Assembly: GCF_003838195.1 (NCBI RefSeq)
Contig: NZ_RCBY01000006.1
Coordinates: 1 to 64,000 of the forward strand
Origin: Okeania hirsuta
GTDB lineage: Bacteria; Cyanobacteriota; Cyanobacteriia; Cyanobacteriales; Microcoleaceae
DNA length: 64,000 nucleotides
Reading direction: 5' to 3'
The position numbers were made by a program, and so were the translations under genes. Of the stretch, positions 41,772-61,153 are shown piece by piece; the stretch's first letter is position 1; every line of letters starts with the position of its first letter. The notes under the pieces were generated by a model that was given only the letters and a program-made list of their open reading frames with translations, ran no database searches and had not been told where the DNA came from.

Positions 41772-42773
41772 TTAATTTTTACCAACAATTTCTCTAACTC
41801 GATAAATAGGTCGTTCTTGAGATTCGTGATAAGTTCGCATCAGTAATTCTGCCAATAAACCAAAACTAAATAATTGTAAACCTGCAAGTAATAACACAAC
41901 AATTAAAATTAGTAGAGGGCGATCGCCAATCTGTTCATTCAAGCCAAATTTGAGGATAGTTAAATAAATCCCCAAAAATAGACCAACTCCCCCAGAAATA
42001 AAACCCAACATTCCAAAAACGTGCATCGGTCTAGTGAGGAATTTTTTCATAAAAAATACTGTTAATAAATCCATCACAACTCGGAAAGTTCGCCCTAAAC
42101 CATACTTACTTTTACCATAGCGACGAGCATAGTGGTTAACAGGTATTTCTGTAATTCTTGCTCCTTCAATAAAAGCTAAAGCTGGTAAAAATCTATGTAA
42201 TTCACCATAAAGGTTCATATCAGCAACCAATTCCAAACGATAAGCTTTTAAAGAACAACCATAATCATGTAAATTTACCCCTGTAACTTTACCAATTATC
42301 CAATTAGCAATTTTAGAAGGAAGTAGTCGTGTAACAGCATCATCCTGCCTATTTTTTCGCCACCCACTAACTAAGTCATAACCTTCATTGAGCTTAGATA
42401 ATAATAGTGGAATATCAGCCGGATCATTTTGTAAATCTCCATCTAAAGTGACAACTACTTTGGCCGTAGCATACTTAAACCCTGCTGCCATAGCTGCAGT
42501 TTGTCCATAATTTCGGCGGAGAATTACTGCTTTTAAATCTGTACGTTTTTGAGCTAATTCTGTTAGTAGTTTTGTCGAACCATCCCGAGATCCATCATCT
42601 ACACAAATAATTTCGTAGGTAAGCTGATTTTCCCTTAAACTAGTAGAAATTGTTTCCAGTAGTTGAGGAATACTATCAACTTCATTGTAAATAGGTGTCA
42701 CAATAGATATATCTAATAGAGTAGGAGAACTTTTATTTACTCCTATCTCTTGAGTGGATAAATAGTTACTCAT
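41772..42773 (-). CDS. GT2 glycosyltransferase, polyprenyl-phosphate sugar type (GtrB/DPM1-like)
   Basis: A 333-residue membrane-bound family 2 glycosyltransferase. The N-terminal GT-A domain has SIVTPIYNEVDSIPQL (about 23-38), CVDDGSRDGS, the nucleotide/metal motif TLDGDLQNDPAD and LHDYGCSLKAYR. Two C-terminal transmembrane helices (about 240-265 and 280-305) follow, then a short basic tail. This class makes undecaprenyl- or dolichyl-phosphate sugars for export and envelope glycosylation. A second relative lies at 44599-45567. It may load sugars for the neighbouring envelope genes (inference). Confidence 0.85.
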   Translation of the reverse strand: MSNYLSTQEIGVNKSSPTLLDISIVTPIYNEVDSIPQLLETISTSLRENQLTYEIICVDDGSRDGSTKLLTELAQKRTDLKAVILRRNYGQTAAMAAGFKYATAKVVVTLDGDLQNDPADIPLLLSKLNEGYDLVSGWRKNRQDDAVTRLLPSKIANWIIGKVTGVNLHDYGCSLKAYRLELVADMNLYGELHRFLPALAFIEGARITEIPVNHYARRYGKSKYGLGRTFRVVMDLLTVFFMKKFLTRPMHVFGMLGFISGGVGLFLGIYLTILKFGLNEQIGDRPLLILIVVLLLAGLQLFSFGLLAELLMRTYHESQERPIYRVREIVGKN

Positions 42774-43144
42774 TTTGATTAGCTACTATGGATAAATCTT
42801 TATTTTATTTAGTTTATCATAACAACTTGAATTTTTGACTGAGTATTCGTAGCAGCAAAATTAGTAATAATTTTAACCAAGACTACTCTAGGGGTAAATA
42901 CAGAAAGCGAAAACTTGTCTAAGAGACTGTTTGTAAAGTTTTGTAATATACAATGATTGACCTTTAAACTGTACAAATTGGTTATTTATCCCAGATTTAT
43001 AGGCTGAAATACCCAATTTGCGAGGGGTAAAAACACTTCATAATTCTTTACAAACAACCTCTAAAGTCTCTCAAAATTACTCATAATTATAGCTATAAAA
43101 CTAAAATGAGTAAGTTTGTTCAGTTGTATATCCATGATAATCGT
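42774..43144. repeat. Intergenic region with a MITE-like repeat at 42920-43063
   Basis: The rest is AT-rich, without a gene. The MITE is listed separately. Confidence 0.45.
42920..43063. mobile_element. MITE-like element, AGAGACTGTTTGTAAAG ends, copy 2
   Basis: A 144-bp unit bounded by TA, with ends AGAGACTGTTTGTAAAG and CTTTACAAACAACCTC. It aligns over its length with the reverse of 12042-12186, including GGTTATTTATCCCA and AAAAACACTT. Confidence 0.75.
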
Positions 43145-43312
43145 GAGATTGGCGTTCGCGGAGCGTGGCGTCAGGCATATCGCCTATTTCAATTGGATTT
43201 GGGTTCATAGTCGCATTTGAAAATACATCAGCACAAAGGGCAGGTTTAGTGATCGCTCCTTGGAACTGGAATGACTTAATTACTTATCCCACACTTTGCG
43301 CTCTGCACTACC
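43145..43312 (+). pseudogene. IS1-family transposase, C-terminal fragment
   Basis: Frame-shifted YFNWIWVHS and then TSAQRAGLV, IAPWNWNDLITYPTLCALH match the 17908-18100 copy. The same REP-like tract (GCGTTCGCGGAGCGTGGCGT, 43153-43172) precedes it. The right terminus GCACTACC lies at 43305-43312. The second REP present in the other copy is absent here. It abuts a TnpB fragment, into which this element probably inserted. Confidence 0.75.
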
Positions 43313-43625
43313 CAATTTACAAAAAAGCATTAAAAAAAGGAATTTTTCATCTGCCGATGAGTGAAATAAAAATTCCCACTTCACAGACAGAAATAATAGA
43401 GGCAAGAATTATCCCCAAAATTAGCTTTTATATAATAGAAATAGTCTATGAAAAATCGGAGTAAACAACAAATAATCAACAAATAGCAGGAGTATATTTA
43501 GGAGTAAATAATTTAATAGCTGTAACGACAAATAAAACAGTAATTTTACCTCTTTTGATTAAAGGCAGACCATTAAAAGCCATTAATAAATTTTATAATA
43601 AACGACGCTCTTGTTTACCGAAAAA
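43313..43625 (+). pseudogene. TnpB/OrfB fragment
   Basis: KKALKKGIFHLPMSEIKIPT, IIEARIIPKISFYIIEIVYE and, after a TAA at 43462-43464, AGVYLGVNNLIAVTTNKTV and LPLLIKGRPLKAINKFYNKR follow the IS605 OrfB pattern up to RuvC-I. The N terminus is replaced by an IS1-type fragment. The 3' part runs into a repeat similar to that at 55005-55060. Inactive. Confidence 0.75.
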
Positions 43626-43817
43626 TTGTGGTTTAAAGCCTCCACTTTTAAGGTGATAATAAATCAAAATTTTCATGATTAGTCAATAGAGCATTAATTC
43701 TTAAGATATAGGTGACATAACATAATAGTTGAAACTAATTTGATGAATCAACTCTTAATTTAAACTTGCTTTTCATTTTTGTTATTTGGTTATTTTTGGA
43801 TATTAACCAAAAGAGAT

Positions 43818-44483
43818 TTAATTATCAAAAAAATCTGATGAAGATGAATCTTTCATTTCTTCTATAACTTTCTTTGGCAGACTGCGACGACGACGATACC
43901 AAGTTGCACCTCCTACTAACATAGCGATGAGACTTAACGCTCCAACTAAAGGCAAAATGTCACCTGTTTTTAATGCTGTTAAACCAGAACTTCCTAACAT
44001 TACAAAAGGCAAAACACCAGGTAAAGTTCCCAAGATAGTGCCTAATAGATAATCTTTAAAACTAACAGATGTTAAACCAGCAGCAAAATTTACTAAACCA
44101 TAAGGAATGATTGGCAATAAACGAATGGCAAACATATAAAATAATCCTCCCTGACGCATTTCAGCATCCATTGCTTGCCATCTTCCAGCCAACTTTTGAG
44201 AAATCCATTCTCGACCTACAGTACGAGAATAATAAAATGCGATAATTGCAGCAATAATTGCTGCTAAACTTGTCCATAATGTACCGATCCAGGGTCCAAA
44301 AATTGCGCCTCCAGCCAGATTAAGTGCTGTAGAAGGTAAAACTAAAATAGTTGCTATTGTATAAATAACTATATAGATTATTGGTGCCCAAATACCTGCT
44401 CGTTCTAGCCAACTTTGAACTTGTTCCGGAGGTAAACCACCTAATAAATAAGCTGCATAAATAAGCTGCTGTTCCAGTGGCAA
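43818..44483 (-). CDS. TVP38/TMEM64 (VTT domain) membrane protein, N terminus frame-shifted
   Basis: A polytopic membrane protein of the SNARE-associated/VTT family. LNLAGGAIFGPWIGTLW and FAIRLLPIIPYGLVNFAAGL are family signatures; relatives act as lipid scramblases or undecaprenyl-phosphate carriers. The open frame begins at a weak TTG (221 codons). In another frame upstream, MFNLKTGIFLLTIICIIATG from an ATG at 44532 is the expected first transmembrane helix. The frames differ because GCAGCTTATTTAT is tandemly duplicated (13 bp, about 44452-44477). Removing one copy joins them as TAAYLLGGLPPEQ. The present gene is either inactivated or N-terminally truncated. Confidence 0.78.
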   Translation of the reverse strand: MPLEQQLIYAAYLLGGLPPEQVQSWLERAGIWAPIIYIVIYTIATILVLPSTALNLAGGAIFGPWIGTLWTSLAAIIAAIIAFYYSRTVGREWISQKLAGRWQAMDAEMRQGGLFYMFAIRLLPIIPYGLVNFAAGLTSVSFKDYLLGTILGTLPGVLPFVMLGSSGLTALKTGDILPLVGALSLIAMLVGGATWYRRRRSLPKKVIEEMKDSSSSDFFDN

Positions 44484-45871: not shown

Positions 45872-47089
45872 CTAGTTTAGTGCCCCATCATACTTTTGTT
45901 TAATTTCTTCTACCAACTTCACTTCATTAGAATTATTGTTTGCCCAAACTTCTCGGTCTTGACGAATTTTTTCTAGATGGGATTCAATATTTTCTTGATT
46001 AATTAAAATCCCAAAATCCTCTGGAACTTCTTCTTCTTTGTAAGATAAAATTCGATTCAAAACTAAATCCCCAACTTTCTTAGTGTAATGAAAATTATCT
46101 CTATAGTTTTCCATACCACTATGGATTGGTTCAATTGTGATACTATTGTATCCAGAAAAATCAAATACTGGAGTAATTTTTACAACTTCACGTTTCCATT
46201 CTTCAAAAGTTGACCACTCACCTGTTGCTCTAATTGCTTCCCACTGAGTTGCATGAGAGGGAGAAATAAATACAATTAACTTAACTTGATTTTTCTGACA
46301 TAAATCTACTATTTTTTTTAATTCAATTAATGGAGTAGATAATTTATACTTAGCATGATCATTAAAATAATTATTGATACCATATTGAAACTTATCTTTA
46401 GTTTTGTCTGGGTCAGGATTTAGAACTGGCATAAATCCATTTGCTTCATAAGGAATATCATCTAGGGAAGTTTTATTACTATCAATTATAGTCTTTTTAC
46501 TAGCTAAAACTCCATTCATAGACAAGGCTACATGAATTATATCTTTCGGGGAAATATACTGTTTTTTTAACCTGTATTCAGCAAAGGTTCCTCGACGCTT
46601 AGTAAATGAATTAAACATCAAAAAATCTAAGCCAATAATAGCCAAACTTAATTCTTGTTGGTTAGCAATACTATGTTCTAAATAACGTCGTAATTCATAA
46701 GCAGTTATAGCATTTAGTCCTAAATTATAAGCAGGTTGTTCATTCTTTAAAGCTGGATAATTAGTATCTAAACCTTGTTTAGTTTTAGATGAACCCATTA
46801 AAACAGTAATAGGTTTAATCCTAATAACATCAGTTGCCTTGAAGAGGCGATCGTTATTATCTTTCCGAGGTTTTGAATGATTTATTCCTAAGAAATTGGG
46901 AGTATTAAAAACATCATAAGGATCGACAACAATGTTAAATATTCCTACAGTAACTATAGGGAGAAATACTGACAAGAAAAACATCCAATTATATCGGCGA
47001 TATTTTTTTCTATTTGCCACATATTTTTCTGATTTTTGAGGATATGAAGAATTAGAAGCAGTAGAACTAAGTTGATTATTGATACTCAT
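45872..47089 (-). CDS. DUF1574 / SGNH-like envelope protein, intact copy
   Basis: 405 residues from the ATG at 47089, which has GGAG upstream; an extension to 47122 is not needed. One transmembrane helix lies near residues 37-57 (WMFFLSVFLPIVTVGIFNIV), so the bulk is probably extracytoplasmic. It has an SGNH-type layout: TVLMGSSKTKQGLD with the candidate nucleophile Ser, IIGLDFLMFN, and the late DNFHYTKKVGD, giving the Asp-x-x-His pair. The C-terminal tail is coiled and charged. AlgJ/AlgX-like SGNH proteins assist O-acylation of exported glycans with MBOAT partners, and an MBOAT gene follows at 48737. I infer such a pairing. Confidence 0.78.
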   Translation of the reverse strand: MSINNQLSSTASNSSYPQKSEKYVANRKKYRRYNWMFFLSVFLPIVTVGIFNIVVDPYDVFNTPNFLGINHSKPRKDNNDRLFKATDVIRIKPITVLMGSSKTKQGLDTNYPALKNEQPAYNLGLNAITAYELRRYLEHSIANQQELSLAIIGLDFLMFNSFTKRRGTFAEYRLKKQYISPKDIIHVALSMNGVLASKKTIIDSNKTSLDDIPYEANGFMPVLNPDPDKTKDKFQYGINNYFNDHAKYKLSTPLIELKKIVDLCQKNQVKLIVFISPSHATQWEAIRATGEWSTFEEWKREVVKITPVFDFSGYNSITIEPIHSGMENYRDNFHYTKKVGDLVLNRILSYKEEEVPEDFGILINQENIESHLEKIRQDREVWANNNSNEVKLVEEIKQKYDGALN

Positions 47090-47148
47090 ATGTAGCTCCA
47101 AGTCAAAGTAGATTTTAGTCAATTTAATATGTCAGATATAATTTTTAT

Positions 47149-48372
47149 CTAGTTTAGTGCCCCATCATACTTTTGTTTAATTTCTTCTACCAACTTCACT
47201 TCATCAGGATTATTTTTAGCCCAAACTTCTCGGTGTTGACGAATTTTTTCTAGATGGGATTCAATATTTTCTGAATTAATTAAAACTCCAAAATCCTTTG
47301 GAACTTCTTCTTCTTTGTAAGACAGGATTCTGTTCAAAATTAAATTCCCTACTTTAGGAGTGTAATGAGAATTCTCTGTATAATTTTCCATATTATTATG
47401 AATAGCTTCAGTTGTGACACTGTTATATCCAGAAAAGTCAAAGACATCACTAATTTCTACAACTTTACGTTTCCATTCTTCAAAAGTTGACCACTGACCA
47501 GAACTTTTAATAATTTCCCATTGAGTTGCATGAGCAGGAGAAATATATGATATTAATTTAATTTGATTTTCTTTACATAAATCGACTACTTTTTTGAATT
47601 CATCTAGTAATTGAGGAGATACTTGAAATATTGTAGAGTAACCTACATAATAATTATTCATAATTCTTTCAAATCTAGACTTAGTTTTTTTCGGGTCAAC
47701 ATTTAGATAAGGTATAAATCCATTTTCTCCATCAAAAATATTATTTGGCAGATTTTTATTACTATCAATTAATGTTTCTTGACTTGCCAAAAAGGCATCT
47801 AAAGAGAAAGTAATATTAAGCAAGTCTTCCAAGAGAATATATTTTTTTTCTAGTCTCTGCTCAGAAAAATTTTGCCTGGTTCCTATCAACGAATTAAACA
47901 TAAAAAAATCTAAGCCTATAACAACTAAGTCTAATTCCTTCTAATTAGCGATCGCGTGTTCTAAATAGCGTCGTAACTCATAGAAATTTCCCTTAGTAAG
48001 TGCTAAATTATCAGCCAGCTTATAATTTTTTAAAGCTAGATAGTTAGGATCTATAGCGCGTTTTGTTCTCGATGAACCCATAAAAACTGTTACAGGTTTA
48101 ATGCGGATAACATCAGTTGCTTTAAAGAGGCTATCACTATTATCTTTCCGAGGTTTTGAATGATTTATTCCTAAGAAATTGGGAGTATTAAATACATCAT
48201 AAGGATCGACAATAATATTAAATACTCCCACAGTAACTACAGGGAGAAATACTGATACTAAAAATAGCCAATTATATCGACGATATTTTTTTCTATTTAC
48301 CATATATTTTTCTAATTTTTTAGCAGTTAAAGGTTGATATAAACTATAACTAAGTTGATTATTTGAACTCAT
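47149..48372 (-). pseudogene. DUF1574 / SGNH-like paralog with one nonsense codon
   Basis: It is collinear with the copy at 45872-47089. It starts MSSNNQLSYS, with the same membrane helix and TVFMGSSRTKRAIDP. A TAG at 47941-47943 interrupts LEHAIAN-KELDLVVIGLDFF, where the intact copy has Gln. The frame is otherwise open for 407 codons. The Asp of the Asp-x-x-His motif is Glu here (TENSHYT), so decay of function may have come before or after the stop. Readthrough cannot be excluded. Confidence 0.82.
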
Positions 48373-48736: not shown

Positions 48737-50218
48737 TTAAAATTGGAAATAAAGAAATTCAGACACACGATTCAGCGATAATAAAGCTAAACTTGTCAAA
48801 ATACCAATCCAAACTGCCCACCACCAAGTAGGTTTTAACTTTGCCAAAATTTCCTGAGTATTTGGTAGGAAACTTACAGAAAAGGTTAAACCTATTAAAC
48901 CCAAAATTGAGAAAATTTTACTCCCCAAAAATTCCGGCAAATAATTCATATCCGACCAAGATTTGAGCTGAAAACCAAAATTAGTTAACACAGATAATTT
49001 ATCTTTAGCTTCCCCTGGTATAACAACCCCATTTAGACCTGCCATTGTCTGTAAAATATCTAGACCATCTTGAATATTTTGCGATCGAAATAACACCCAA
49101 CCAACAATAACAGCAACAAAAGTAATTACCCACGCCAATACTTTCGGCATCGGAATATTTAACTTTCGCCAACCATGATTTATACATAAATATGTACCGT
49201 GTAAACCTCCCCAAATTACATAAGTCCAACCTGCACCATGCCATAATCCACCTAACAGCATTGTTGTCAAAAGATTACTATAACTACGTACTTCTCCACG
49301 ACGACTTCCACCCAGGGGAATATATAAATAATCTCTCAGAAAATTGGATAAAGTAATATGCCATCTTTGCCAAAAATCACTAATAGAAGTAGCCTTGTAG
49401 GGAGAGTTAAAATTAATCGGTAATTTAATATTAAACATCAACCCCAAACCGATCGCCATATCGGAGTAACCAGAAAAATCAAAATATAGCTGAAAAGTGT
49501 AACTTAAAGCTCCTACCCAAGCTTCAATAAAACTCAACTCAGAAGCATTATTAAAAGCTAGTGCTACCCAATGCGATATAGTGTCAGCTATCAAAACTTT
49601 TTTACATAATCCCAGACTAAAAATACTTAAACCCAAAGCCATATTTTTCTGGGAAAAAATATAACTACGCAATTGACGAAACTGGGGAATAAGTTCATCG
49701 TGGCGTAAAATAGGTCCGGCGATTAATTGGGGAAAGAAAACCACAAAGAAACTATAAGTAAGTAAATCATAATTAGTCTCTCTTGTTTCCCCACGATAAG
49801 CATCTACTAAATAAGCTATCTGAGTAAAAGTATAAAAAGAAATTGCCAAAGGCAAAATAATTTGCCCAGCATTCAAATTTGTAGAAACTACTGAATTAAC
49901 AGTATCCAAGAAAAAGTTCGCATATTTATAATAGGAAATTATTGCTAAATTAAGAGCTATACCTACCCAAAGTAAAATATTTGCTCGCTTACTTTCCGGT
50001 TTAGCTTCAGCAATAAATTTACCCATTTGATAATTCCACAAAATAGAAATTATCAGCAGAGGCAAATAAGCAACATTCCAATAACCGTAAAAAGCAAAAG
50101 AGCTAGCAGTCAACCAAACCTTAGCAGCTTTAATTAAACCAAACTTGGTTAAGGCAAAGAATACAATCAGAGTTAAAGGTAAAAAACCAAAGATAAAAAT
50201 ATAAGAGTTAAATAACAT
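48737..50218 (-). CDS. MBOAT family O-acyltransferase (AlgI/DltB type), copy 1
   Basis: A 493-residue polytopic membrane protein with about ten helices. It has the MBOAT signatures LPLAISFYTFTQIAYLVDAY (about 118-137), FFPQLIAGPILRHDEL, FDFSGYSDMAIGLGL, FWQRWHITLSNFLRDYLYIPLGG and the catalytic-His region LLGGLWHGAGWTYVIWG. AlgI-type MBOATs move acyl groups across the membrane to polysaccharides or other exported acceptors. It is directly downstream of the DUF1574 array's strand partner order, with 17 bp to the nearest remnant. The acceptor is unknown. Confidence 0.9.
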   Translation of the reverse strand: MLFNSYIFIFGFLPLTLIVFFALTKFGLIKAAKVWLTASSFAFYGYWNVAYLPLLIISILWNYQMGKFIAEAKPESKRANILLWVGIALNLAIISYYKYANFFLDTVNSVVSTNLNAGQIILPLAISFYTFTQIAYLVDAYRGETRETNYDLLTYSFFVVFFPQLIAGPILRHDELIPQFRQLRSYIFSQKNMALGLSIFSLGLCKKVLIADTISHWVALAFNNASELSFIEAWVGALSYTFQLYFDFSGYSDMAIGLGLMFNIKLPINFNSPYKATSISDFWQRWHITLSNFLRDYLYIPLGGSRRGEVRSYSNLLTTMLLGGLWHGAGWTYVIWGGLHGTYLCINHGWRKLNIPMPKVLAWVITFVAVIVGWVLFRSQNIQDGLDILQTMAGLNGVVIPGEAKDKLSVLTNFGFQLKSWSDMNYLPEFLGSKIFSILGLIGLTFSVSFLPNTQEILAKLKPTWWWAVWIGILTSLALLSLNRVSEFLYFQF

Positions 50219-50701: not shown

Positions 50702-52588
50702 CTAATTATTTTCTTGGTCATCTGAACAAGATTTTTGCATGACACTTTTCTTTTCCACAGTTTGTGTTTCCCCTGGTGGTACAGTTCTCTCATCCATAAA
50801 GAAAATATCGAAACTTTCTAATTTTTCCGAACCTTCATTCTTTTTATTCCATTCACGACACACATACTCTGCATAATAAGGATAAAGTTTTTTACCTATA
50901 GCTCGATTGAAATTTAGGAAATAAGTCCGCCACTGCATATTAGAATACAATTTATTAAATTCTCTTAGAGTTGGTTTATCCCAACTTAAAGGCTCTCCTT
51001 TTTTATACAAAACATCAACTTCTTTACCATTTTTCAACTTACCAGGAATAACATGCCAACCATCATCTCTAGGTGGAGCAGGAGCAAAGATACTCCAAGA
51101 TTTATCTAATTTTGTCACCTTACCAAAAACATCTAACCTTTGTACAATCCGACGTTGAAATAATTTGTGAGTCTTAGTAATTAAATCTTGCTTTTGTACT
51201 TTTCTTCTTTGATAGGTTTGTTTGACAAAACTTTTAACGTTCCAAATAAAAGTATAAATAATTAGTAAAAATATAATGATATTTAATCCGCGATAAGGAC
51301 GTATATTTAAAGGACGAAATTGAAGAGGTTTAGTAAAGTTGCCAGCAAATTTTCTATTATTGGCAATAGTTTCATAAAATTTAGTTCCAATTGGCATGAT
51401 TGATGGTAATCCCATCACAAAAGCCAAAGGTTTAAATATAGGAGACAAACTAAATACATAAACTAAAGCTTCCCATTTAAAAAGTCGATTTTCTTGCCAG
51501 TCTACCACTACCCAAGAATTTTTATCCTGCATATCAGCATAGATAGATTCATCAGTTTGACAAGTCGTTAATGGCGTTCCCGGTAAAATCAAAAAAGTGC
51601 GTAGCAGATAAACAACTTTCTTACAAAATCCACAGTCTTTATCATAATAAATCTTTAATCCTTGCCGTTCATTTGTCTTAATTTTTTCCTGCCAATTATC
51701 CCATACTGGTGTAGGAATCAAAGCCAACCAACTAACAATACTTAAAAAAGGAAATATTCCTATAGTAAAACACAAACCAAAAGTAATATGTAAAAGAATA
51801 AATGAAACAACAGCAAAGGAACGGAAAAACGTAATTCCAAAAGGAATAAAAATCATCCAAGGTCCTAACCATTCAAACCAAAGAGCTGCCCAGGTTAGTA
51901 ACTTTAATATAGGCTGAGGAAAACTTAGTAAAAATTGCCCGAATGTTGTAGCATACCCATCAAAACTCAAAGAATAATAGACAGCATCTCCATCAGGCCA
52001 CCATAATTCACTTTTTGTTTTATATGCTGCTGAACCTGCGTAAATAAGCACCATTTGTGCCATTAATGCAAAAGTAGCAGCAGAACAAATACGTTTCGGT
52101 AATTTTTCTGTTGATGAATTCAATGCACTATCAATTGAATAGTTTGCTCCCAATGGTAAGAACATTGACCAAAAAAGTAGCACCCTTAATACATCATCTC
52201 CAGCAAAAATCAGGGTAGGATTTCTATTATGAATAGAAATAATAAACGCCCACATAGCAATAGTTGCTAATCTAGTTCGATATCCTACTAACAAAGCTAT
52301 AGCTATTAATCCTGCAAATAAGAAAATTAACCCCTGTACAAAAGCTGCACCACTAATTGAATTTATTGACCAATACAAAGGACTTGAAATTTCCTTGAGT
52401 AATGTTCGAGGCAATACTCCAGCATCACTATAATGAGCTGTTAAATCTCCAGCACGGATAATTAAATCTGTGATAATTATTAACGCTAACCCTATTCTAA
52501 ATAGGGCAAGCGATCGCAAATCTAAACCAAACAATTTTTCCAGTGTGGCACCTAAATTATTTTTTTCCTTTTCCATACTTACTGTCAT
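50702..52588 (-). CDS. HTTM membrane protein fused to a DCC thiol-disulfide domain
   Basis: 628 residues. The N-terminal 300 residues are a polytopic HTTM domain (vitamin K-dependent gamma-carboxylase homology), starting LEKLFGLDLRSLALFRIGLA with LFWSMFLPLGANYSID. A DCC1/DUF393 domain follows, with the motif YYDKDCGFCKK (about 309-319) and a later membrane helix (about 432-450). The C-terminal 160 residues are soluble and include WSIFAPAPPRDDGWHVIPGK. Related HTTM-DCC proteins may handle quinone- or flavin-linked redox chemistry at the membrane, but the substrate is unknown. It lies between an MBOAT gene and an NDH-2-like gene, both on the same strand. Confidence 0.8.
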   Translation of the reverse strand: MTVSMEKEKNNLGATLEKLFGLDLRSLALFRIGLALIIITDLIIRAGDLTAHYSDAGVLPRTLLKEISSPLYWSINSISGAAFVQGLIFLFAGLIAIALLVGYRTRLATIAMWAFIISIHNRNPTLIFAGDDVLRVLLFWSMFLPLGANYSIDSALNSSTEKLPKRICSAATFALMAQMVLIYAGSAAYKTKSELWWPDGDAVYYSLSFDGYATTFGQFLLSFPQPILKLLTWAALWFEWLGPWMIFIPFGITFFRSFAVVSFILLHITFGLCFTIGIFPFLSIVSWLALIPTPVWDNWQEKIKTNERQGLKIYYDKDCGFCKKVVYLLRTFLILPGTPLTTCQTDESIYADMQDKNSWVVVDWQENRLFKWEALVYVFSLSPIFKPLAFVMGLPSIMPIGTKFYETIANNRKFAGNFTKPLQFRPLNIRPYRGLNIIIFLLIIYTFIWNVKSFVKQTYQRRKVQKQDLITKTHKLFQRRIVQRLDVFGKVTKLDKSWSIFAPAPPRDDGWHVIPGKLKNGKEVDVLYKKGEPLSWDKPTLREFNKLYSNMQWRTYFLNFNRAIGKKLYPYYAEYVCREWNKKNEGSEKLESFDIFFMDERTVPPGETQTVEKKSVMQKSCSDDQENN

Positions 52589-52782: not shown

Positions 52783-54027
52783 TTATCTCAATTTTTTGTG
52801 ACTAGCTGATTTGCCAAATAAATGTTGCCACCAAACTTGTAATCTATGGCGAATAACTTTAAATTTGTGAGATAAAGTAGGTAATCTTTGAATATAAACT
52901 CCTAACCTAACCAAAGCAGCAAAAGAGCCAGATAAACTAATACCAAAACTAGAAATAGCTGCCGTATTCATCCCCAAAGTAATCATCTCTCCCAAATGTA
53001 AATAATGAAACGGTCTTGGGCGTTTATTATTTAAAGTTTTCCACAGATTTTTTGCTGCTTGACTTGCTTGTTGATAAGCAACTTGAGCTGTTGCTGGAAG
53101 TTGTTGATTATTGGGATATGAAATCTCCGCAACATCTCCTAATGCAAATACTTCTGGATAGTCCACTAACTGTAAAGTTGGCTCACAAATAAGTTGACCT
53201 CTAGAATTATGAGAACAATCCAAATTTTTCACCAACTCTCTCATTTGAGTTCCCGCAGTCCATAATATTAAATCGGTGGGGATAACAGCAGTTTCTCCAG
53301 CTTGCAAAATAGTGATTTTGTCAGTTTCAATAGCATTCACACCTGTCTGTAAACTGATTAAAACATTTCTTTTATCTAAAGCTCGTTGAGCATTTTTCCG
53401 AGTAGCAGGAGTAAAACTTTTCAGAATTTCCTTTCCTCTTTCTATCAGACGTATTTCTCCCCTTTTCCCTAATCTATCTGCTATTTTTCCTGCTAACTCT
53501 ACCCCACTCGGACCCCCACCTACAATACTTACCAGAATTTTTTCTTGGCTAGAATTTTCCAAACTTTGTAACTTTTGTTCGAGGCGTTGAGTATCAGCTA
53601 AAGTTCTGAATGTCAAAACATTTTCTGCACCATTTGGTATTTTTCCATTAGTGACACCCACAGCAATAACTAAATAATCATAAGGCAAATTTCCTCCCTC
53701 TAAAAGTTTAACTTGACTAGTTTTTAAATCAATATCTTCAACCGTGTCTTGGCAAAACTGAATGTCTTTATTTTTGAGTAATTTATCAAAAGATGGAGCT
53801 ATTTCCCAAGTTTTAAGTTCATCTGTAATCACCTCATAAAGTAAGGGAGTAAACACAATATGATCCTGTGAATCTATTAAAATTATTTGACAGTTTTTAT
53901 GTTTAAATCCCCGAAAGCTTTGTAAATACAATGCTGTATAAAGACCGCCGAAGCCACCGCCTAAAATACAAATTTTTGTAGCTACATTACTTCCTTCGAC
54001 TGTTTCAGATATTTTTCCAGTTTCCAC
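52783..54027 (-). CDS. Type II NAD(P)H dehydrogenase-like flavoprotein
   Basis: A 414-residue pyridine-nucleotide-disulfide oxidoreductase fold. The FAD-binding GGGFGGLYTALYL spans about 23-35, the NAD-binding IVGGGPSGVELAG about 167-179, and the FAD-contact ALGDVAEI about 295-302. The start is GTG. The C terminus carries an amphipathic segment (YIQRLPTLSHKFKVIRHRL), as in NDH-2. Such enzymes pass electrons from NAD(P)H to membrane quinones. In cyanobacteria NdbB reduces demethylphylloquinone for the last methylation step; whether this copy is NdbB cannot be decided from sequence alone. It neighbours the HTTM-DCC gene on the same strand. Confidence 0.85.
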   Translation of the reverse strand: METGKISETVEGSNVATKICILGGGFGGLYTALYLQSFRGFKHKNCQIILIDSQDHIVFTPLLYEVITDELKTWEIAPSFDKLLKNKDIQFCQDTVEDIDLKTSQVKLLEGGNLPYDYLVIAVGVTNGKIPNGAENVLTFRTLADTQRLEQKLQSLENSSQEKILVSIVGGGPSGVELAGKIADRLGKRGEIRLIERGKEILKSFTPATRKNAQRALDKRNVLISLQTGVNAIETDKITILQAGETAVIPTDLILWTAGTQMRELVKNLDCSHNSRGQLICEPTLQLVDYPEVFALGDVAEISYPNNQQLPATAQVAYQQASQAAKNLWKTLNNKRPRPFHYLHLGEMITLGMNTAAISSFGISLSGSFAALVRLGVYIQRLPTLSHKFKVIRHRLQVWWQHLFGKSASHKKLR

Positions 54028-55132
<1,105 letters not shown>

Positions 55133-56590
55133 TTAAAACTCAAAGTAAATAAATTCAGAAGGAATAGTTGCCCCCAGTAAAATAGTTAAACCTAGCAGAC
55201 CCCTAGATATCCAAGGAGATAGCAATAACTCATACTCATCTCGCTGCTGCCAAACTGCCAAATGTTCTAAAAATAATGCCCCGATCGCCACAGCTAAAGT
55301 AAAAACTAAAGCCCAAGCCTCATTTATGCTATAAGAGCTAAAAGCATCGATCACCCCTGAAAGTGAATAAGCTCCAGGTGTAACTAAAGTTACTAACTTA
55401 GTACCCAACCTACTAATATTAGTTTCCATAAAAAATAAACAGCCTAGAGTCACGGACATAAACGTCAAGGCCCAGGAAACTAAATCAGTTCTAGAAGTCC
55501 ATCTACCCACAAACCTCTGAAAAGGTCTCCCGGCATATCTGATTGCCAATAGTAATGCTCCGTGGTAAGCTCCCCATAAAATAAAATTCCAGGCTGCCCC
55601 GTGCCAAAAGCCTGAAAGAGTAAATGTTATAAATAAATAAAATGGTGCCCATTGTTTATTTGCACCCATCAAAGGAATAAAAACATAGTCCCTAAACCAG
55701 TTACTCAGAGTAATGTGCCAACGTCGCCAAAATTCTTGGATACTGACAGAAGTGTAGGGTGCCAGAAAGTTTAATTCTAGTTTAACTCCCACAAATCTAG
55801 CGATACCAACAGCCATAAAGCTGTAACCACCAAAGTCAAAATATATTCTTAAAGTAAACAAAAAGGCATGAAACCAAACTAACAAAGCATTTGTTGCTTG
55901 CTCTAGGTCTATATATGGAGTAATGTTATCTGCTAGAACAAATTTCATAAATAAACCTAGAGATAACCATCGCAAACCTAATTCAAAGTTTTCTACAGTA
56001 AATTTGAATTTAAAAGATTCTAACTGGGGTAATAATTGTTTGCGTCTTTCGATTGGACCTGCTACAATTTGGGGAAAAAATGCGATAAAGTTGACGTAAT
56101 CTATGAAATTAATTGGCTTTTTCTTTTTCGCTGTAAAAGAATCTACAACAAATGCCACCATCTGAAAAGTATAAAAAGAAATCCCTGGTGGAATAGTCTT
56201 ATATACAGGTAAAGGAAAACTTTGTTGCCAATTATTCGGAATTCCTACCACTAAACCTACTACATCTTCTACAAAAAATGTGAGATATTTAAAGTATGCT
56301 AATACTGCTACATCAAATACTATTAAAAATGTAGCGATCGCCCTTGACTCCCAACCACGCCTTTGCAACATTAGTCGCACCATTATGTAGTTGAAAATCA
56401 CCTCAAATATAAATACGGCAAAACTTTTTAAACTAGCATTTAAAAATAATGTTAGTGATAATACCATCAAGCCAATGGTATCAAAATAATCTTGCCAGAA
56501 GTTTAACCTTTTTCCTAGAGCGCGGATGGTGAAGAAAGGCACACTAAAAATCAGCAGCACCCACCAGAAGGAAAAATCCGAAAAATTCAA
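55133..56590 (-). CDS. MBOAT family O-acyltransferase, copy 2
   Basis: A 485-residue polytopic protein with GISFYTFQMVAFVVDSF (about 124-140), FFPQIVAGPIERRKQLLPQL, FDFGGYSFMAVG, FWRRWHITLSNWFRDYVFIPLMG and the His region LSGFWHGAAWNFILWG. The start is TTG at 56590, strongly supported by GAGGAGG about ten bases upstream. It differs clearly from copy 1 (48737-50218), so this is not a recent duplication. It lies downstream of the FAAL-ACAD-ACP operon on the same strand and is the likeliest user of the acyl-ACP made there, by inference. Confidence 0.9.
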   Translation of the reverse strand: MNFSDFSFWWVLLIFSVPFFTIRALGKRLNFWQDYFDTIGLMVLSLTLFLNASLKSFAVFIFEVIFNYIMVRLMLQRRGWESRAIATFLIVFDVAVLAYFKYLTFFVEDVVGLVVGIPNNWQQSFPLPVYKTIPPGISFYTFQMVAFVVDSFTAKKKKPINFIDYVNFIAFFPQIVAGPIERRKQLLPQLESFKFKFTVENFELGLRWLSLGLFMKFVLADNITPYIDLEQATNALLVWFHAFLFTLRIYFDFGGYSFMAVGIARFVGVKLELNFLAPYTSVSIQEFWRRWHITLSNWFRDYVFIPLMGANKQWAPFYLFITFTLSGFWHGAAWNFILWGAYHGALLLAIRYAGRPFQRFVGRWTSRTDLVSWALTFMSVTLGCLFFMETNISRLGTKLVTLVTPGAYSLSGVIDAFSSYSINEAWALVFTLAVAIGALFLEHLAVWQQRDEYELLLSPWISRGLLGLTILLGATIPSEFIYFEF

Positions 56591-57125: not shown

Positions 57126-57533
57126 TTATGAACCACTTACTCCCTTCCAAAAACCACCCCAACCTTTACCAGATTTTTCAGCAGTTTCTTCCGCTTCTTC
57201 TGTTTTTTCTTCAGAGCTTGCCAAATTTTCTAATGCCTCAGAAATATCAAATTCAGAAACTAAATATTGAGCAGATTTTTCTATAGTTGGATAATCCCAA
57301 AATAAAGTAGAAGGTAACTCTAATTCTAGTTCATCTTCCAGCTCACCAACTAGAGTTACTGCATCAATTGAGTCCAAACCATAACGAGTTAAAGGTTCGG
57401 TAAATTCGATAGTACTTTTGTCAACAGACAATTGTTCTGCTAACTTTTCAGCAATCCACTTTTGTAAGATTTCTAAGGGGGAATTTTCTGTTTTTGCTTC
57501 AGTATTAAGCGTGCTGGAGTTCTGAACTTGCAT
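57126..57533 (-). CDS. Acyl carrier protein
   Basis: 135 residues with one phosphopantetheine-binding domain (about 20-95). The attachment motif is YGLDSIDAVTL, with Ser at about 55. LEDELELELPSTLFWDYPTI is the usual helix II-III region of PKS/NRPS-type carriers. A Glu-rich linker and a Gly/Trp-rich tail (KGWGGFWKGVSG) follow. The start overlaps the upstream acyl-CoA dehydrogenase gene by 29 bp, indicating translational coupling. It is a dedicated carrier for the FAAL product rather than the housekeeping AcpP. Confidence 0.9.
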   Translation of the reverse strand: MQVQNSSTLNTEAKTENSPLEILQKWIAEKLAEQLSVDKSTIEFTEPLTRYGLDSIDAVTLVGELEDELELELPSTLFWDYPTIEKSAQYLVSEFDISEALENLASSEEKTEEAEETAEKSGKGWGGFWKGVSGS

Positions 57534-59307
57534 TTATTTTATTCTCCTGTTTTTTAGTTTGTGCTAGTTGAAAAGGAACAATAGAAAAGATTTTATTTTC
57601 GTTATCAAGTTTGAGCATTTCTTGAGTAACTTTTTCCCAATATAATTGGTCTACTTTTCGTGAATGCCCAAAAGGTTGCAGTAGACGATTTAAACATAGT
57701 ACCAACCACTCACCACCTGCAAAAAACTCACCCAGTATTTCGCGGTTATAAATCCACATATGCAAACACGCAGCAGCAGCGTGTAAAGCACAGTATTTTT
57801 TAGCTATTTCAAATAATTCTGGTGACTGGTCGTGACCAAACTCAAATGCTGAATTAGCAATTTTTTGGTCGTGAGCGTTTACTTCTTCAATAATACACTC
57901 AGTCAGTGTAGTAATTTGCTCTAAAACTTTAGTATTTATGTTAGCAGTTTTTAAAGCTTTTAACTGTTCTAAAGCAATTTCTAATCCTTGTAAAGCATCA
58001 TCAGATCCCCGTCCTACAATTTCCAGTTTTTCTGGTTCAAAAGTAGGCAATTGTTTCTCCAAGGAAAAGATTATTTCCAGACGAGATTTAATTGCTTCCA
58101 TCTTAGCATAATTCCGTCTAGAACGTTGTTTTGTTAACTGACGAAACTGTAAAATTAGAGAATGCAAATTAACAACTGTACTACCATCAAATACACTAAT
58201 AATTGAGTTATCTCTCAGCACTTTTTGAAACATTCCCCAGTCATGTTCTTCCCGCATATAAAAACGAGAACCTAACACCACTGAAATATTATTAATCATC
58301 GTTTCTAGCTGAGTAGTAACAAAATATTTCACCACTGCACCCCAGACACTAAATTGTCCAGGAACAACATGAAATCCTCTCGCTGCTCCAATTGTTTCAC
58401 AATCACCAATTAAGATGTCTAAAAAGGCTTCAGTCAAAGTTCTGCGAGGTTGAGGAATATCTAAAACTTTTTTGTTGTAAACAACTCGATTGATCGCAAA
58501 TTTTAATGTAGTTCTTAAGGCTGTGTCAGCAGCTCCAAGAGAAAAAGCTGCACACAAAGTTCTGGTAATTTGAAATCCTTTCAGAGCTACTTCTAGACCG
58601 GATCCTTCTCCCTTAATCAACATATCTTCAGGAACAAAGCAATCCTTAAAACCTATCCCACTCATATCAGAAGCACGAATTCCGTGGGTAAGGATTTTTG
58701 GTAAATTGTAGTAATTTGCTGGGTCTAGTCGGCTTTTTTCTACCATAAATAAAGACAGACCTCTAGCTCCTCCATCCTCTTGGTCTGTTTTTGCTAATAT
58801 ATAAGAAACTCCAGAAATAGTTGCACGATTTATCGGCCACTTTTCCCCATTCAGTAAATAACCTCCAGGAACTTTTGTTGCGTTCAAATCTCCACCAATT
58901 AGGTCAGCACCATGTTCCTTCTCTGAGTAACCAAGGCACATTGCCCCATGTTCATCTTTAATATAGGTTGCTAACTTTTGCTTTTGTTCGTCTGTACCTG
59001 CCATCCAGGTAATAAAAGACCAAAATAAGGTAGTAAAAGCAATTCCAATTGTTTGGTCGCGTCTACACAAAACTCTAACAAAGGCCAAAAACTCTTCAAA
59101 AGAAGTAAACTCCCCCCCACAATTAACAGGGATATAGTGGTGTTGTAACTTCCAATTATAGAGCCACTCAATTTCCTGATGTGGAAATTCTTCACTCTCA
59201 TCAATTTCAATTACTCTCTTGAAAGACATTGTACTGTCTGGATTTTGTGGATCGCCAAGAGCACGCTCTAACTCTTCAGCTACCCAATATTGCTTGAGTT
59301 TATCCAT
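57505..59307 (-). CDS. Acyl-CoA (acyl-ACP) dehydrogenase
   Basis: A 600-residue flavoprotein of the acyl-CoA dehydrogenase family. It introduces a 2,3-double bond into an acyl thioester. GYSEKEHGADLIGGDLNATK (about 130-149), LNGEKWPINRATISG, GLSLFMVEKSRLDP, QITRTLCAAFSLGAADTALR and VFDGSTVVNLHSLILQ are family segments. The N terminus and a long helical C terminus are extended relative to short-chain enzymes. AGGAGA precedes the ATG. Between FAAL and ACP (31-bp gap and 29-bp overlap), it most likely oxidises acyl-ACP rather than acyl-CoA. Confidence 0.88.
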   Translation of the reverse strand: MDKLKQYWVAEELERALGDPQNPDSTMSFKRVIEIDESEEFPHQEIEWLYNWKLQHHYIPVNCGGEFTSFEEFLAFVRVLCRRDQTIGIAFTTLFWSFITWMAGTDEQKQKLATYIKDEHGAMCLGYSEKEHGADLIGGDLNATKVPGGYLLNGEKWPINRATISGVSYILAKTDQEDGGARGLSLFMVEKSRLDPANYYNLPKILTHGIRASDMSGIGFKDCFVPEDMLIKGEGSGLEVALKGFQITRTLCAAFSLGAADTALRTTLKFAINRVVYNKKVLDIPQPRRTLTEAFLDILIGDCETIGAARGFHVVPGQFSVWGAVVKYFVTTQLETMINNISVVLGSRFYMREEHDWGMFQKVLRDNSIISVFDGSTVVNLHSLILQFRQLTKQRSRRNYAKMEAIKSRLEIIFSLEKQLPTFEPEKLEIVGRGSDDALQGLEIALEQLKALKTANINTKVLEQITTLTECIIEEVNAHDQKIANSAFEFGHDQSPELFEIAKKYCALHAAAACLHMWIYNREILGEFFAGGEWLVLCLNRLLQPFGHSRKVDQLYWEKVTQEMLKLDNENKIFSIVPFQLAQTKKQENKINASSELQHA

Positions 59308-59338
59308 GCTAAATCTCCTATTTATCTAGGTTAAATTT

Positions 59339-61153
59339 CTAGCTATTTTTCATTTGGGATGCTAATGACTCAACTTCTTCTTGTAACTTTCGATACTTGG
59401 AGGTTAGTTGAGGATTTTCACTCCAGTCAGATATCACGTCTAGGGTTCCGGCCAAAAAATTGGAACGACAAGCACGACGTTGAATCTTGCCACTAGCAGT
59501 CTTAAGAATATTTCCTGACTTAGCCAAAATTACAGCATAAGCTTGTAATTCATGGTCTTCTGAAACAGCTTGGCGGATATCATTGATGACTTTCTCCGTA
59601 TCCAAATCTTGAGTGCGACGTTCTACCTCTTGAACAATGACTAAATGTTCATCACCCCTAACTTCGACTGAAAAAGCAGCACCATAATCTGGACGAAGTG
59701 CCGGATGAACCTGTTGTACTGTCCACTCAATATCTTGGGGATAGTGATTTGTACCTCGGATAATAATTAAATCTTTAATCCTACCTGTAATATACAGCTC
59801 ACCATCTTTCATAAATCCTAGGTCTCCAGTCCGCAAAAACGGACCTTCCCCACTATCTTTGATGTAAGCTTGGAATGTTTCTTTAGTAGTTTCTGGACGT
59901 TCCCAGTAGCCTTGAGCTACACTGGGGTCTGATACCCAAATCTCTCCCACTTCATCAGTAGCACATTTTGCTAAAGTTTCTGGATTGACAATAGCTACCT
60001 GAGTTTCACAAACTAAGCGACCACAAGATGGATAAGCTCTTACCCCTGTCGCATCAGGAGAAACTTCTACAATTTTATTTTTTTCTACTAGATCTGTTGC
60101 ATCTATAGTGCAAAGTACTGGGTCTGTGAGTTTAGGTTTGGCTGAAACCAGTAAAGTATCTTCTGCTAGTCCATAACATGGAGCAAAAGCATTCCAACGA
60201 AAACCACAAGCTGAGAAAGTTTTGTAGAAACTCTCCATAACTTTTGGGTTAATAGGTTCTGCTGCATTACCTGCTGCTTCCCAATTACTAAGGTCTAAAG
60301 TAGATAGTTGTTTTGGCTTAACTCGGCGAACACAAAGGTCATAAGCAAAGTTAGGTGCTTGAGAGTGGGTCGCTTTGTAATTTGACAGAGCTTGCAGCCA
60401 TCTCAGGGGTTGCTTCACAAATGAAAATGGGGACATTATGTAGCATGGAGTTCCATTATATAGGGGTTCCATCATTCCTTCCACTAACCCATAATCGTGG
60501 AAGAAAGGCATCCAGGTAATAGTTTTGCTTTCTGGTGTGTACCCACAAGCTCTCTGTAGATAGCTTAAGTGATGAATCAAATTTTTGTGGGTCAGCATTA
60601 CCCCTTTTGGAGTAGAAGTAGAACCAGAGGTATACTGCAAATACGCTAGTGTATCGCCAGTAATACCTGGATCTTTCCATTCCTGAGCTATTTCTAAATC
60701 AACAGATTCAGTATCTATCCAGCGCATTGTCTCGAACTCAGGAAATTCATCAGCCACTTCTTCTACAAGGGAAATAATTGTGGCCGTTGTTAGCACCAGG
60801 GAAGCTTGAGCATCTTGAACTATGGCTCTAAGTCTAGGCAAAGTTCGTTTGAGACGACCTGCTTCTGGAGGAGGTACTGGAATTGCGATTACTCCAGAGT
60901 ATAGACAACCACAAAAAGCTGCTATTGCTTCTAGTCCTTGTGGATAGAGTAGTAAGCCTCGTTCTCCTTTGACTTGATGTTTTTGTAGCAATGCTGCAAT
61001 AGCTCGTACTCGATGCTCTAGTGAAGCATAAGTAAAGTTTTCCCCTTCTTTTTTGCCGTCAACCAAAAAAGTGTATGCTAGTTTTTCTGGTTGTTCTGCT
61101 GATAAAGTTTGAAGTAGGTCTATTAGGGTGGAATATTTCACTGTCTCACTCAT
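59339..61153 (-). CDS. Fatty acyl-AMP ligase (FAAL)
   Basis: A 604-residue ANL enzyme of the FAAL class. It activates a fatty acid as acyl-adenylate and loads it onto an ACP. AYLQYTSGSTSTPKGVMLTH (about 169-188) is the P-loop motif. WMPFFHDYGLVEGMMEPLY, LRTGDLGFMKDGELYITGR, KDLIIIRGTNHYPQDIE (with NHYP typical of FAALs) and the catalytic Lys in ASGKIQRR (about 556-563) follow. It starts an operon with acyl-CoA dehydrogenase and ACP genes. No PKS or NRPS module is adjacent in this window, so the acyl-ACP is probably used for lipid or surface modification. Confidence 0.92.
   Translation of the reverse strand: MSETVKYSTLIDLLQTLSAEQPEKLAYTFLVDGKKEGENFTYASLEHRVRAIAALLQKHQVKGERGLLLYPQGLEAIAAFCGCLYSGVIAIPVPPPEAGRLKRTLPRLRAIVQDAQASLVLTTATIISLVEEVADEFPEFETMRWIDTESVDLEIAQEWKDPGITGDTLAYLQYTSGSTSTPKGVMLTHKNLIHHLSYLQRACGYTPESKTITWMPFFHDYGLVEGMMEPLYNGTPCYIMSPFSFVKQPLRWLQALSNYKATHSQAPNFAYDLCVRRVKPKQLSTLDLSNWEAAGNAAEPINPKVMESFYKTFSACGFRWNAFAPCYGLAEDTLLVSAKPKLTDPVLCTIDATDLVEKNKIVEVSPDATGVRAYPSCGRLVCETQVAIVNPETLAKCATDEVGEIWVSDPSVAQGYWERPETTKETFQAYIKDSGEGPFLRTGDLGFMKDGELYITGRIKDLIIIRGTNHYPQDIEWTVQQVHPALRPDYGAAFSVEVRGDEHLVIVQEVERRTQDLDTEKVINDIRQAVSEDHELQAYAVILAKSGNILKTASGKIQRRACRSNFLAGTLDVISDWSENPQLTSKYRKLQEEVESLASQMKNS

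What the first reader, a model, noticed from the sequence alone, without database searches (positions are those of the whole stretch)
41772..61153. Candidate undescribed envelope acylation system: FAAL-ACAD-ACP with MBOATs, SGNH-like DUF1574, GT2s, VTT and HTTM-DCC
Seen: one 20-kb block, almost all minus strand, holds a fatty-acid activating trio, two MBOATs, a family of membrane-anchored SGNH-like proteins, two polyprenyl-sugar-type GT2s, a VTT protein, an HTTM-DCC fusion and an NDH-2-like enzyme. Known: MBOAT plus SGNH (AlgI with AlgJ/AlgX) acylate exported glycans, and FAAL loads ACP. Inferred: a (2,3-unsaturated) acyl group is made on a private ACP and handed through an MBOAT to a surface glycan or lipid. 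No PKS/NRPS module is present to use it otherwise.
Basis: partly seen in the sequence, partly recalled or inferred. Interest (0 to 1): 0.75.

Follow-up and report, generated by a model that had tools for sequence, protein, structure and literature searches.

The report
Cyanobacterial carrier-fed envelope fatty-acylation system
Many cyanobacteria share a set of genes that looks like a machine for loading a fatty acid onto a small carrier protein and passing it through the membrane onto something on the cell surface, much like a known Gram-positive system but apparently for fatty acids instead of an amino acid.

Summary
The block is real and conserved. Among 71 loci with a close ACAD, MBOAT2 lies downstream in 49 of 58 with enough sequence. 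In 148 genomes of the order, MBOAT2 and D orthologues occur in the same 18; FAAL and ACAD in those plus one; HTTM in 17 of the 18, also where the genes are scattered (four places in one Microcystis-type chromosome). By sequence, DltB is MBOAT2's only solved relative, and MBOAT2 ends in the F-x-Y-x-x-F acyl-shuttle motif of MBOAT-SGNH transferases. Best reading: FAAL loads a fatty acid on the ACP, ACAD perhaps makes it 2,3-unsaturated, MBOAT2 moves it to its C-terminal tyrosine, and D passes it to an envelope acceptor, probably a glycan: Dlt's layout with a fatty acyl group. A 2025 paper (passages seen) says MBOAT-SGNH pathways other than Dlt lack a carrier protein. The second MBOAT, DUF1574-like proteins, GT2s and VTT look peripheral. 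Donor, chain, unsaturation and acceptor are inferred, not shown.

The parts
59339..61153 (-). FAAL: fatty acyl-AMP ligase, proposed to activate a fatty acid and load the ACP (role of DltA)
   Evidence: AMP-binding 220 bits. NCBIfam: best is the N-terminal part of an NRPS/PKS model (517 bits), next FAAL_FadD32 (456 bits); DltA model 106 bits; all below their cut-offs. Nearest solved chains are named polyketide synthase (572 aa), saframycin synthetase B and FadD32-type; that the first two are FAAL structures is recall
57505..59307 (-). ACAD: acyl-CoA-dehydrogenase-family enzyme, proposed to act on acyl-ACP and make a 2,3-enoyl chain
   Evidence: Three ACAD Pfam domains. Asp stands where the aligned medium-chain enzyme has Glu in 'YEG', in 13 of 13 aligned sequences
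57126..57533 (-). ACP: stand-alone acyl carrier protein (role of DltC)
   Evidence: PP-binding 60.4 bits. Attachment motif GxDSx in 88 of 95 ACP-labelled ORFs under 200 aa, duplicate records included; all 7 misses are distant-clade loci
55133..56590 (-). MBOAT2: DltB-like membrane O-acyltransferase with C-terminal FIYFEF tyrosine-shuttle motif
   Evidence: PF03062 88 bits; profile matches DltB among solved chains at E 2e-30, the other rows being chance-level; C-terminal FIYFxF in 20 of 20
54028..55132 (-). Former gene slot: short sulfotransferase remnant where many relatives carry SGNH gene D; D itself is intact elsewhere in this genome (contig C73, about 16321-17256, 311 aa)
   Evidence: 24-residue match, 71% identity, E 7e-08 in a search of this 1.2-kb stretch alone, to the Okeania sulfotransferase; D found
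52783..54027 (-). NDH-2-like flavin oxidoreductase; frequent operon member, possible electron acceptor for the ACAD (inference)
   Evidence: Pyr_redox_2 157 bits; downstream in 32 of 54 informative close loci; the wider family is in 145 of 148 genomes
50702..52588 (-). HTTM-DCC fusion, core by co-occurrence; role unknown, DCC CxxC kept
   Evidence: PF05090 and PF04134; 17 of 18 system genomes; CGFC 17 of 17
48737..50218 (-). MBOAT1: second MBOAT, ends FLYFQF; lineage-specific partner
   Evidence: PF03062 126 bits; motif in all 23 MBOAT1 ORFs scanned, the window's and duplicate records included; in 13 of 50 informative close loci
47149..48372 (-). SGNHb: SGNH-like paralogue, interrupted by one in-frame stop
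   Evidence: the two ORFs are 47941-48372 and 47149-47901
45872..47122 (-). SGNHa: membrane-anchored SGNH-like protein next to MBOAT1, probable MBOAT1 partner (SGNH label from motifs read by eye)
   Evidence: No Pfam match; follows MBOAT1 in L127, L111, L138, L139
44599..45567 (-). GT2b: polyprenyl-phosphate-sugar-type GT2, peripheral
   Evidence: Glycos_transf_2; 75% homologue follows HTTM-MBOAT1-SGNHa in L138
43818..44483 (-). VTT-domain membrane protein, peripheral
   Evidence: PF09335 100 bits; homologue follows SGNHa in L127
41772..42773 (-). GT2a: polyprenyl-phosphate-sugar-type GT2, peripheral
   Evidence: Glycos_transf_2; 71% homologue near an SGNHa homologue in L135

Best explanation
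A carrier-protein-fed MBOAT-SGNH acyltransferase system for fatty acyl groups, laid out like Dlt (what it works like, not membership). FAAL adenylates a fatty acid and loads it on the stand-alone ACP. The ACAD-like enzyme probably oxidises acyl-ACP to 2,3-enoyl-ACP. MBOAT2 takes the chain from the ACP at the cytoplasmic face and moves it to the tyrosine of its own C-terminal FIYFEF peptide. Membrane-anchored SGNH protein D takes it on its serine and hands it to an envelope acceptor, most likely a surface glycan. HTTM-DCC is needed for the same task in an unknown way; the NDH-2-like protein may take the ACAD's electrons. Shown by sequence: families, motifs, gene order, co-occurrence. Inferred: donor, chain, unsaturation, acceptor, redox roles.
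For: Gene order FAAL-ACAD-ACP-MBOAT2-D-NDH2-HTTM in many cyanobacterial families. MBOAT2 and D orthologues in exactly the same 18 of 148 order genomes (a weak 38% D fragment in G027 aside); ACAD and FAAL orthologues in those 18 plus G015; HTTM in 17 of 18. The sets match even where genes are scattered: G095, a Microcystis type by its gene neighbourhood, has FAAL, HTTM, MBOAT2-D-NDH2 and ACAD-ACP in four places; the window's genome keeps D on another contig. Second, partly overlapping class sample of 291: ACAD in 16, MBOAT2 in 17, D in 18, each set inside the next. The MBOAT2 profile finds DltB among solved chains. FIYFxF end in 20 of 20; PMC12148441 (abstract and passages) shows this tyrosine as acyl shuttle in PatA and describes it for DltX. 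D model: pLDDT 86.6, SGNH-hydrolase fold, best Z 13.7 over 187 residues at 4.2 A, PatB at Z 11.4; DltD in the Foldseek list at E 0.016. D keeps GSGxH and DTHYH in 20 of 20. Acceptor: a divergent MBOAT2-D pair lies inside KDO-synthesis loci of two genomes.
Against: No biochemistry. Nothing here tests that MBOAT2 takes acyl-ACP rather than acyl-CoA. D keeps Gly (17 of 20) or Ala (3 of 20) at the block II position as I read it, whereas PMC12148441 reports Ser/Asn there in OatA and PatB. The ACAD has Asp at the expected catalytic Glu. No gene of glycan synthesis is constant in the core. L035 shows a close trio beside an NRPS protein. MBOAT2 scores below the DltB equivalog cut-off (181.8 vs 375). 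Microcystis loci have no MBOAT2 beside the ACAD. One distant-clade locus (L122) has an ordinary MBOAT about 5 kb from its trio on the other strand. Foldseek TM-scores of D are modest (about 0.3-0.4 by query length). The genomes are related, so the counts are not independent events.
Confidence: 0.55

Rival explanations
1. Natural-product tailoring. The trio makes an acyl-ACP for a secreted small molecule, and MBOAT2-D acylates a glycosylated metabolite rather than an envelope polymer.
For: Distant FAAL-ACAD-ACP trios sit by PKS, NRPS or an alpha-oxoamine synthase. One closer trio (L035) has an NRPS condensation-PCP neighbour. MBOATs are proposed to acylate aeruginosin-type glycosides in cyanobacteria (PMC10143770, passages).
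Against: No PKS/NRPS module found in the block. The core set is constant while no scaffold-making gene is. An SGNH partner and a tyrosine-shuttle motif are typical of transfer outside the membrane. Scattered genes with kept co-occurrence are unlike a typical natural-product cluster.
Confidence: 0.2
2. Lipid route. The acceptor is a membrane lipid or glycolipid, so the product is an unusual acylated envelope lipid, with the same FAAL-ACP-MBOAT2-D relay.
For: Fatty-acid donor enzymes. HTTM-DCC in the core and an NDH-2-like protein often beside it. No glycan-synthesis gene constant in the core.
Against: Divergent MBOAT2-D pair inside KDO-synthesis loci. The MBOAT-SGNH pairs named in PMC12148441 act on polymers.
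Confidence: 0.17
3. Two separate systems side by side: MBOAT2-D is an ordinary O-acetyltransferase pair using acetyl-CoA, and the FAAL trio makes an acyl chain for something else.
For: PMC12148441 says MBOAT-SGNH pathways other than Dlt evidently use acyl-CoA. The divergent MBOAT2-D pair in G340 (L152) comes without an ACAD at E 1e-150.
Against: Near-perfect joint presence of FAAL, ACAD, MBOAT2, D and HTTM across 148 genomes, also where unlinked, and MBOAT2 downstream of ACP in 49 of 58 informative close loci.
Confidence: 0.08

Closest known systems
Dlt D-alanylation system (DltA, DltB, DltC, DltD, DltX)
   Same: Adenylating enzyme, carrier protein, MBOAT homologous to DltB, SGNH-fold partner, FxYxxF tyrosine motif
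   Different: The activating enzyme is a FAAL and an ACAD is added. The motif is fused to the MBOAT instead of on DltX. D has no sequence match to a solved chain. HTTM-DCC and often an NDH-2-like partner; host without lipoteichoic acid (general knowledge)
PatA-PatB, AlgI-AlgJ/X and related MBOAT-SGNH O-acetyltransferases
   Same: MBOAT with C-terminal FxYxxF and a separate SGNH partner
   Different: PMC12148441 (passages) says these lack a carrier protein; PatA uses acetyl-CoA. Here a dedicated FAAL and ACP co-occur. The block II Ser/Asn of PatB/OatA is not seen in D
FAAL-ACP starter units of PKS/NRPS lipopeptide pathways (jamaicamide, olefin synthase and others)
   Same: FAAL plus ACP
   Different: No PKS/NRPS module found in the block. 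The word MBOAT does not occur in the main text of the FAAL review PMC11837247 (term search)

Membership tests
Dlt system | DltA-type D-alanine adenylating enzyme | tested here: not met
   DltA model 106 bits against a 476 cut-off, while an NRPS/PKS model (517 bits, N-terminal part) and FAAL_FadD32 (456 bits) score far higher
Dlt system | Dedicated carrier protein with phosphopantetheine serine | tested here: met
   PP-binding 60.4 bits; GxDSx. Whether it is DltC proper was not tested
Dlt system | MBOAT that is DltB | tested here: not met
   Homologous (E 2e-30 to solved DltB) but 181.8 bits against the 375 equivalog cut-off
Dlt system | DltD-type SGNH partner | tested here: inconclusive
   SGNH fold; DltD in the Foldseek list at E 0.016; no sequence match to any solved chain
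Dlt system | Transfer to teichoic acid | not testable with these tools
   Needs chemistry
MBOAT-SGNH acyltransferase pairs | MBOAT with C-terminal FxYxxF motif | tested here: met
   20 of 20 in the MBOAT2 alignment; also in the divergent L152 protein
MBOAT-SGNH acyltransferase pairs | Separate SGNH-fold partner with conserved Ser and Asp/His | tested here: met
   Model and fold comparison; GSGxH and DTHYH 20 of 20, changed to GSSTH/GSATH and DTTFH/DTPYH in the divergent L152/L153 proteins. Triad geometry not measured
MBOAT-SGNH acyltransferase pairs | Block II Gly replaced by Ser/Asn (PatB, OatA) | tested here: not met
   Gly 17, Ala 3 of 20 at the position I assign by eye
MBOAT-SGNH acyltransferase pairs | Acyl-CoA donor | not testable with these tools
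   Genome context points to acyl-ACP
FAAL family | FAAL rather than CoA ligase by best models and solved relatives | tested here: met
   FAAL-type models outscore CoA-ligase models, though all are below their cut-offs; solved relatives
Acyl-CoA dehydrogenase family | Three-domain ACAD architecture | tested here: met
   Pfam N, M and C domains; the N domain is just under its cut-off (20.5 against 22.9); PDB matches
Acyl-CoA dehydrogenase family | Catalytic Glu in the YEG motif of medium-chain enzymes | tested here: not met
   Asp in 13 of 13; the residue's role is recalled
PKS/NRPS lipopeptide cluster | PKS or NRPS module next to the FAAL trio | tested here: not met
   None among the 20 ORFs I scanned between 32603 and 62554, a choice that covers the block but not every small ORF

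The most novel reading that the evidence does not exclude
A second class of carrier-protein-fed transmembrane acylation: a 'fatty Dlt' in which a dedicated ACP delivers a 2,3-unsaturated fatty acyl chain through an MBOAT whose own C-terminal tyrosine shuttles it to a new SGNH family, decorating a cyanobacterial surface polymer, with HTTM-DCC as an unexpected core partner.
Probability: 0.4. Interest if true: 0.78.

Novelty: new variant of a known kind. Interest (0 to 1): 0.62.

Why it matters
PMC12148441 (passages) states that MBOAT-SGNH pathways other than Dlt lack a carrier protein. A fatty-acid version in Anabaena, Crocosphaera, Leptolyngbya, Okeania and, dispersed, Microcystis types would extend the Dlt principle to Gram-negative cells and to hydrophobic groups, and give a genetic handle on how these cells make their surface or mucilage hydrophobic. 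It also ties a function to an unnamed SGNH family (D) and to HTTM-DCC, whose role is unknown to me; one search for it found no paper.

Tried and rejected
Treating the DUF1574-like proteins as the MBOAT partner of the trio: rejected as core, because in the 71 close loci they occur only in the 13 with MBOAT1, while D tracks MBOAT2. Treating the FAAL trio as an orphan PKS/NRPS starter: rejected for the close clade, kept for the distant one. Calling D a DltD: sequence searches gave nothing, and VIA-align listed no DltD among its 50 entries, which does not exclude it. HTTM profile against solved chains: no match. Plasmid search: no D match; the 132 records with an MBOAT2 match are all under 60% identity. 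NDH2 as a core marker: the family is in 145 of 148 genomes, so uninformative. The sulfated flocculant emulcyan was looked up as a possible product; passages of PMC4500136 say it masks hydrophobicity and detaches cells, so I do not claim it. Literature: searches returned no paper; others returned 2, 4, 4 and 3, and 27 returned 18. Of these I saw passages of PMC12148441, PMC11837247, PMC10143770, PMC12419801, PMC9558356 and PMC10213974, none of which describes this gene set; the others only as listings. The library holds open-licence PMC papers only.
Full report
What is there. The block 41772-61153 holds, on the minus strand in order of transcription, FAAL, ACAD, ACP, MBOAT2, NDH-2-like, HTTM-DCC, MBOAT1, SGNHb, SGNHa, GT2b, VTT and GT2a. 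The genome is 8.79 Mb in 716 contigs, and the two MBOATs are the only ones the Pfam search found in it. The ACAD is 93% identical to Okeania, so the source is probably a close cousin of Okeania/Hydrocoleum.

Gene order in relatives. One scan of genome contigs with an ACAD alignment found 324 encoding stretches; only the best 80 were kept, and a few come from the same genome. I split them by identity to the window: 71 at 58% or more (lowest 59.5%; clade A) and 9 at 44-49% (clade B). Clade A: MBOAT2 lies within 6.5 kb downstream, same strand, in 49 of 58 loci with at least 4 kb there; the nine misses are eight Microcystis and Crocosphaera watsonii. FAAL lies upstream in 40 of 55 with at least 2.5 kb; the 15 misses are Crocosphaera/Cyanothece, Chroococcus/Aphanothece and Microcystis types. 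ACP 66 of 67, D anywhere in the locus 35 of 56, NDH2 32 of 54, HTTM 32 of 53, MBOAT1 13 of 50, each among loci with enough downstream sequence. Loci too short were left out of each count. Clade B: MBOAT2 in 0 of 7 with 4 kb downstream, and 0 of 9 overall; but L122 (the same place as L045) has an ordinary MBOAT, 34% identical to MBOAT1 and also ending in FIYFQF, about 5 kb away on the other strand. In the ACAD tree eight of the nine clade B rows form one group (support 98) and the ninth, L121, stands alone on a long branch. The nine unlinked clade A rows nest among linked ones, so their lack of linkage looks like loss of linkage; L035, beside an NRPS protein, also nests in clade A (quick method, SH-aLRT only, midpoint root, deep forks open).

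The missing gene. In many relatives a protein of about 300-340 aa ("D") sits between MBOAT2 and NDH2. In the window that slot has no ORF of 70 aa or more, only a 24-residue, 71% match to a sulfotransferase intact in Okeania L049 and L050. D is intact on contig C73 of the same genome (59% identity to the query; ORF of 311 aa). The D tested has no Pfam or NCBIfam match (L067), and the D profile has no sequence match in the PDB. Its AlphaFold2 model (pLDDT 86.6, pTM 0.86) has an N-terminal helix and an SGNH-hydrolase fold: best VIA-align Z 13.7 over 187 residues at 4.2 A, PatB at Z 11.4 over 170 residues at 4.1 A. Foldseek puts two rhamnogalacturonan acetylesterase entries first and DltD at rank 10, E 0.016, with modest TM-scores.

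Co-occurrence. Over 148 genomes of the order: MBOAT2 orthologues (65% or more) in 18 genomes; D in the same 18, apart from a weak 38% fragment in G027; ACAD (58% or more) in the 18 plus G015, with four more at 45-50%; FAAL (63% or more) in the 18 plus G015, with the next FAAL at 61%, so that border is not sharp; HTTM (54% or more) in 17 of the 18, missing from G070 (77% complete), with a 45% relative in G083. In G010 (86% complete) MBOAT2 and ACAD are in pieces. The 18 fall in 13 of 81 genera. Two genera hold both states: g36 has the set in 2 of 6 sampled genomes and g28 in 2 of 3. If genomes were independent, two matching sets of 18 would have a chance of 1.6e-23; they are not independent, so this is only a scale. 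A class sample of 291, partly the same genomes (G000, G095 and G112 among the positives), gave ACAD 16, MBOAT2 17 and D 18 at the thresholds used, each set inside the next. In all 13 genomes with all three genes that were not in the first sample, ACAD, MBOAT2 and D are adjacent by their coordinates in those calls. Where genes are dispersed the set is still complete: G095, Microcystis-type by its neighbourhood, has FAAL, HTTM, MBOAT2-D-NDH2 and ACAD-ACP in four places of one chromosome; G129 has the set on three contigs.

Mechanism. MBOAT2's profile finds DltB (E 2e-30) and otherwise only chance-level rows among solved chains. It ends in F-I-Y-F-x-F in 20 of 20. PMC12148441 (abstract and passages) shows that PatA acylates the tyrosine of this motif and that PatB takes the group from such a peptide, and describes DltX doing the same between DltB and DltD; it says other MBOAT-SGNH pathways lack a carrier protein. 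Here a FAAL and an ACP come with the pair. So the layout is Dlt's, with FAAL for DltA, ACP for DltC, MBOAT2 for DltB plus DltX, and D for DltD. This is a statement of what it works like; it fails membership of Dlt on the activating enzyme and on the DltB equivalog score.

The enoyl step. The ACAD keeps the family domains but has Asp where the aligned medium-chain enzyme has Glu, in 13 of 13. It may be slower or act on another bond. An indirect hint: distant trios in L116, L122 and L126 are followed by an alpha-oxoamine synthase and an SDR; the best solved relatives of the one tested (L122) are long-chain-base/serine palmitoyltransferase subunits, while NCBIfam puts bioF first and all models below cut-off. 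A 2,3-enoyl chain joined to serine would place a double bond at C4 of a sphingoid base (chemistry from general knowledge).

The acceptor. A divergent MBOAT2 (586 bits) with adjacent D (232 bits) in G340, and a D (262 bits) with a contig-edge MBOAT2 fragment in G410, lie in loci with KdsA and KdsC; in G340 also KdsB, a KdsD-type isomerase and ABC exporter-like genes whose matches stay below cut-off. This points to a surface glycan for the relatives; for the core system it is an inference. PPTase genes lie in several loci, and an FkbM methyltransferase beside MBOAT2-D in others.

Periphery. MBOAT1 (FLYFQF end) with SGNHa is probably a second MBOAT-SGNH pair. It follows HTTM in 13 close loci and, with a 75% GT2b homologue, in L138. 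GT2a and VTT homologues appear near such loci only now and then. They should not be counted in the core.

Verdict. Real, conserved, and on present evidence a new variant of MBOAT-SGNH acylation. Confidence in the relay is moderate; the acceptor and chain are open.

Noticed in passing
L116 9998-16743, L122 9809-14920, L126 9869-15657: Distant FAAL-ACAD-ACP trios of Oscillatoria/Planktothricoides types are followed by an alpha-oxoamine synthase (for L122, nearest solved: serine palmitoyltransferase-type chains) and an SDR: a candidate cyanobacterial sphingoid-base pathway with a built-in 4-ene. L125 has the same layout.
   Followed up: partly
L152 8048-13122 and L153 19-4491: A divergent MBOAT2-D pair sits inside KDO-synthesis loci of two genomes that have no ACAD match at E 1e-150.
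   Followed up: partly
window 54028-55132; L049 14303-15298 and 17977-19320; L050 14431-15351: Okeania relatives carry a sulfotransferase in the slot of D, and L049 an arylsulfotransferase inside the block; the window keeps a short sulfotransferase remnant.
   Followed up: partly
window genome contigs C412 7618-9450 and C219 677-2431: Two further HTTM-DCC-like genes, 61% and 45% identical to the window copy.
   Followed up: no
L056: A contig labelled Candidatus Gracilibacteria carries the cluster at 76% ACAD identity and nests beside Hydrococcus; probably a mis-binned cyanobacterial contig.
   Followed up: no
L066: Crocosphaera watsonii WH 8501 keeps an ACAD with no ACP or MBOAT2 match beside it, next to transposase-like ORFs (my reading by eye); possible breakdown of the system.
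   Followed up: no
L122 15986-18532: A distant-clade trio has an ordinary MBOAT ending FIYFQF and a 320-aa possible partner about 5 kb away on the other strand.
   Followed up: no
window 32603-33307: OrfB_IS605/TnpB-type transposase gene some 8 kb from the left end of the block.
   Followed up: no
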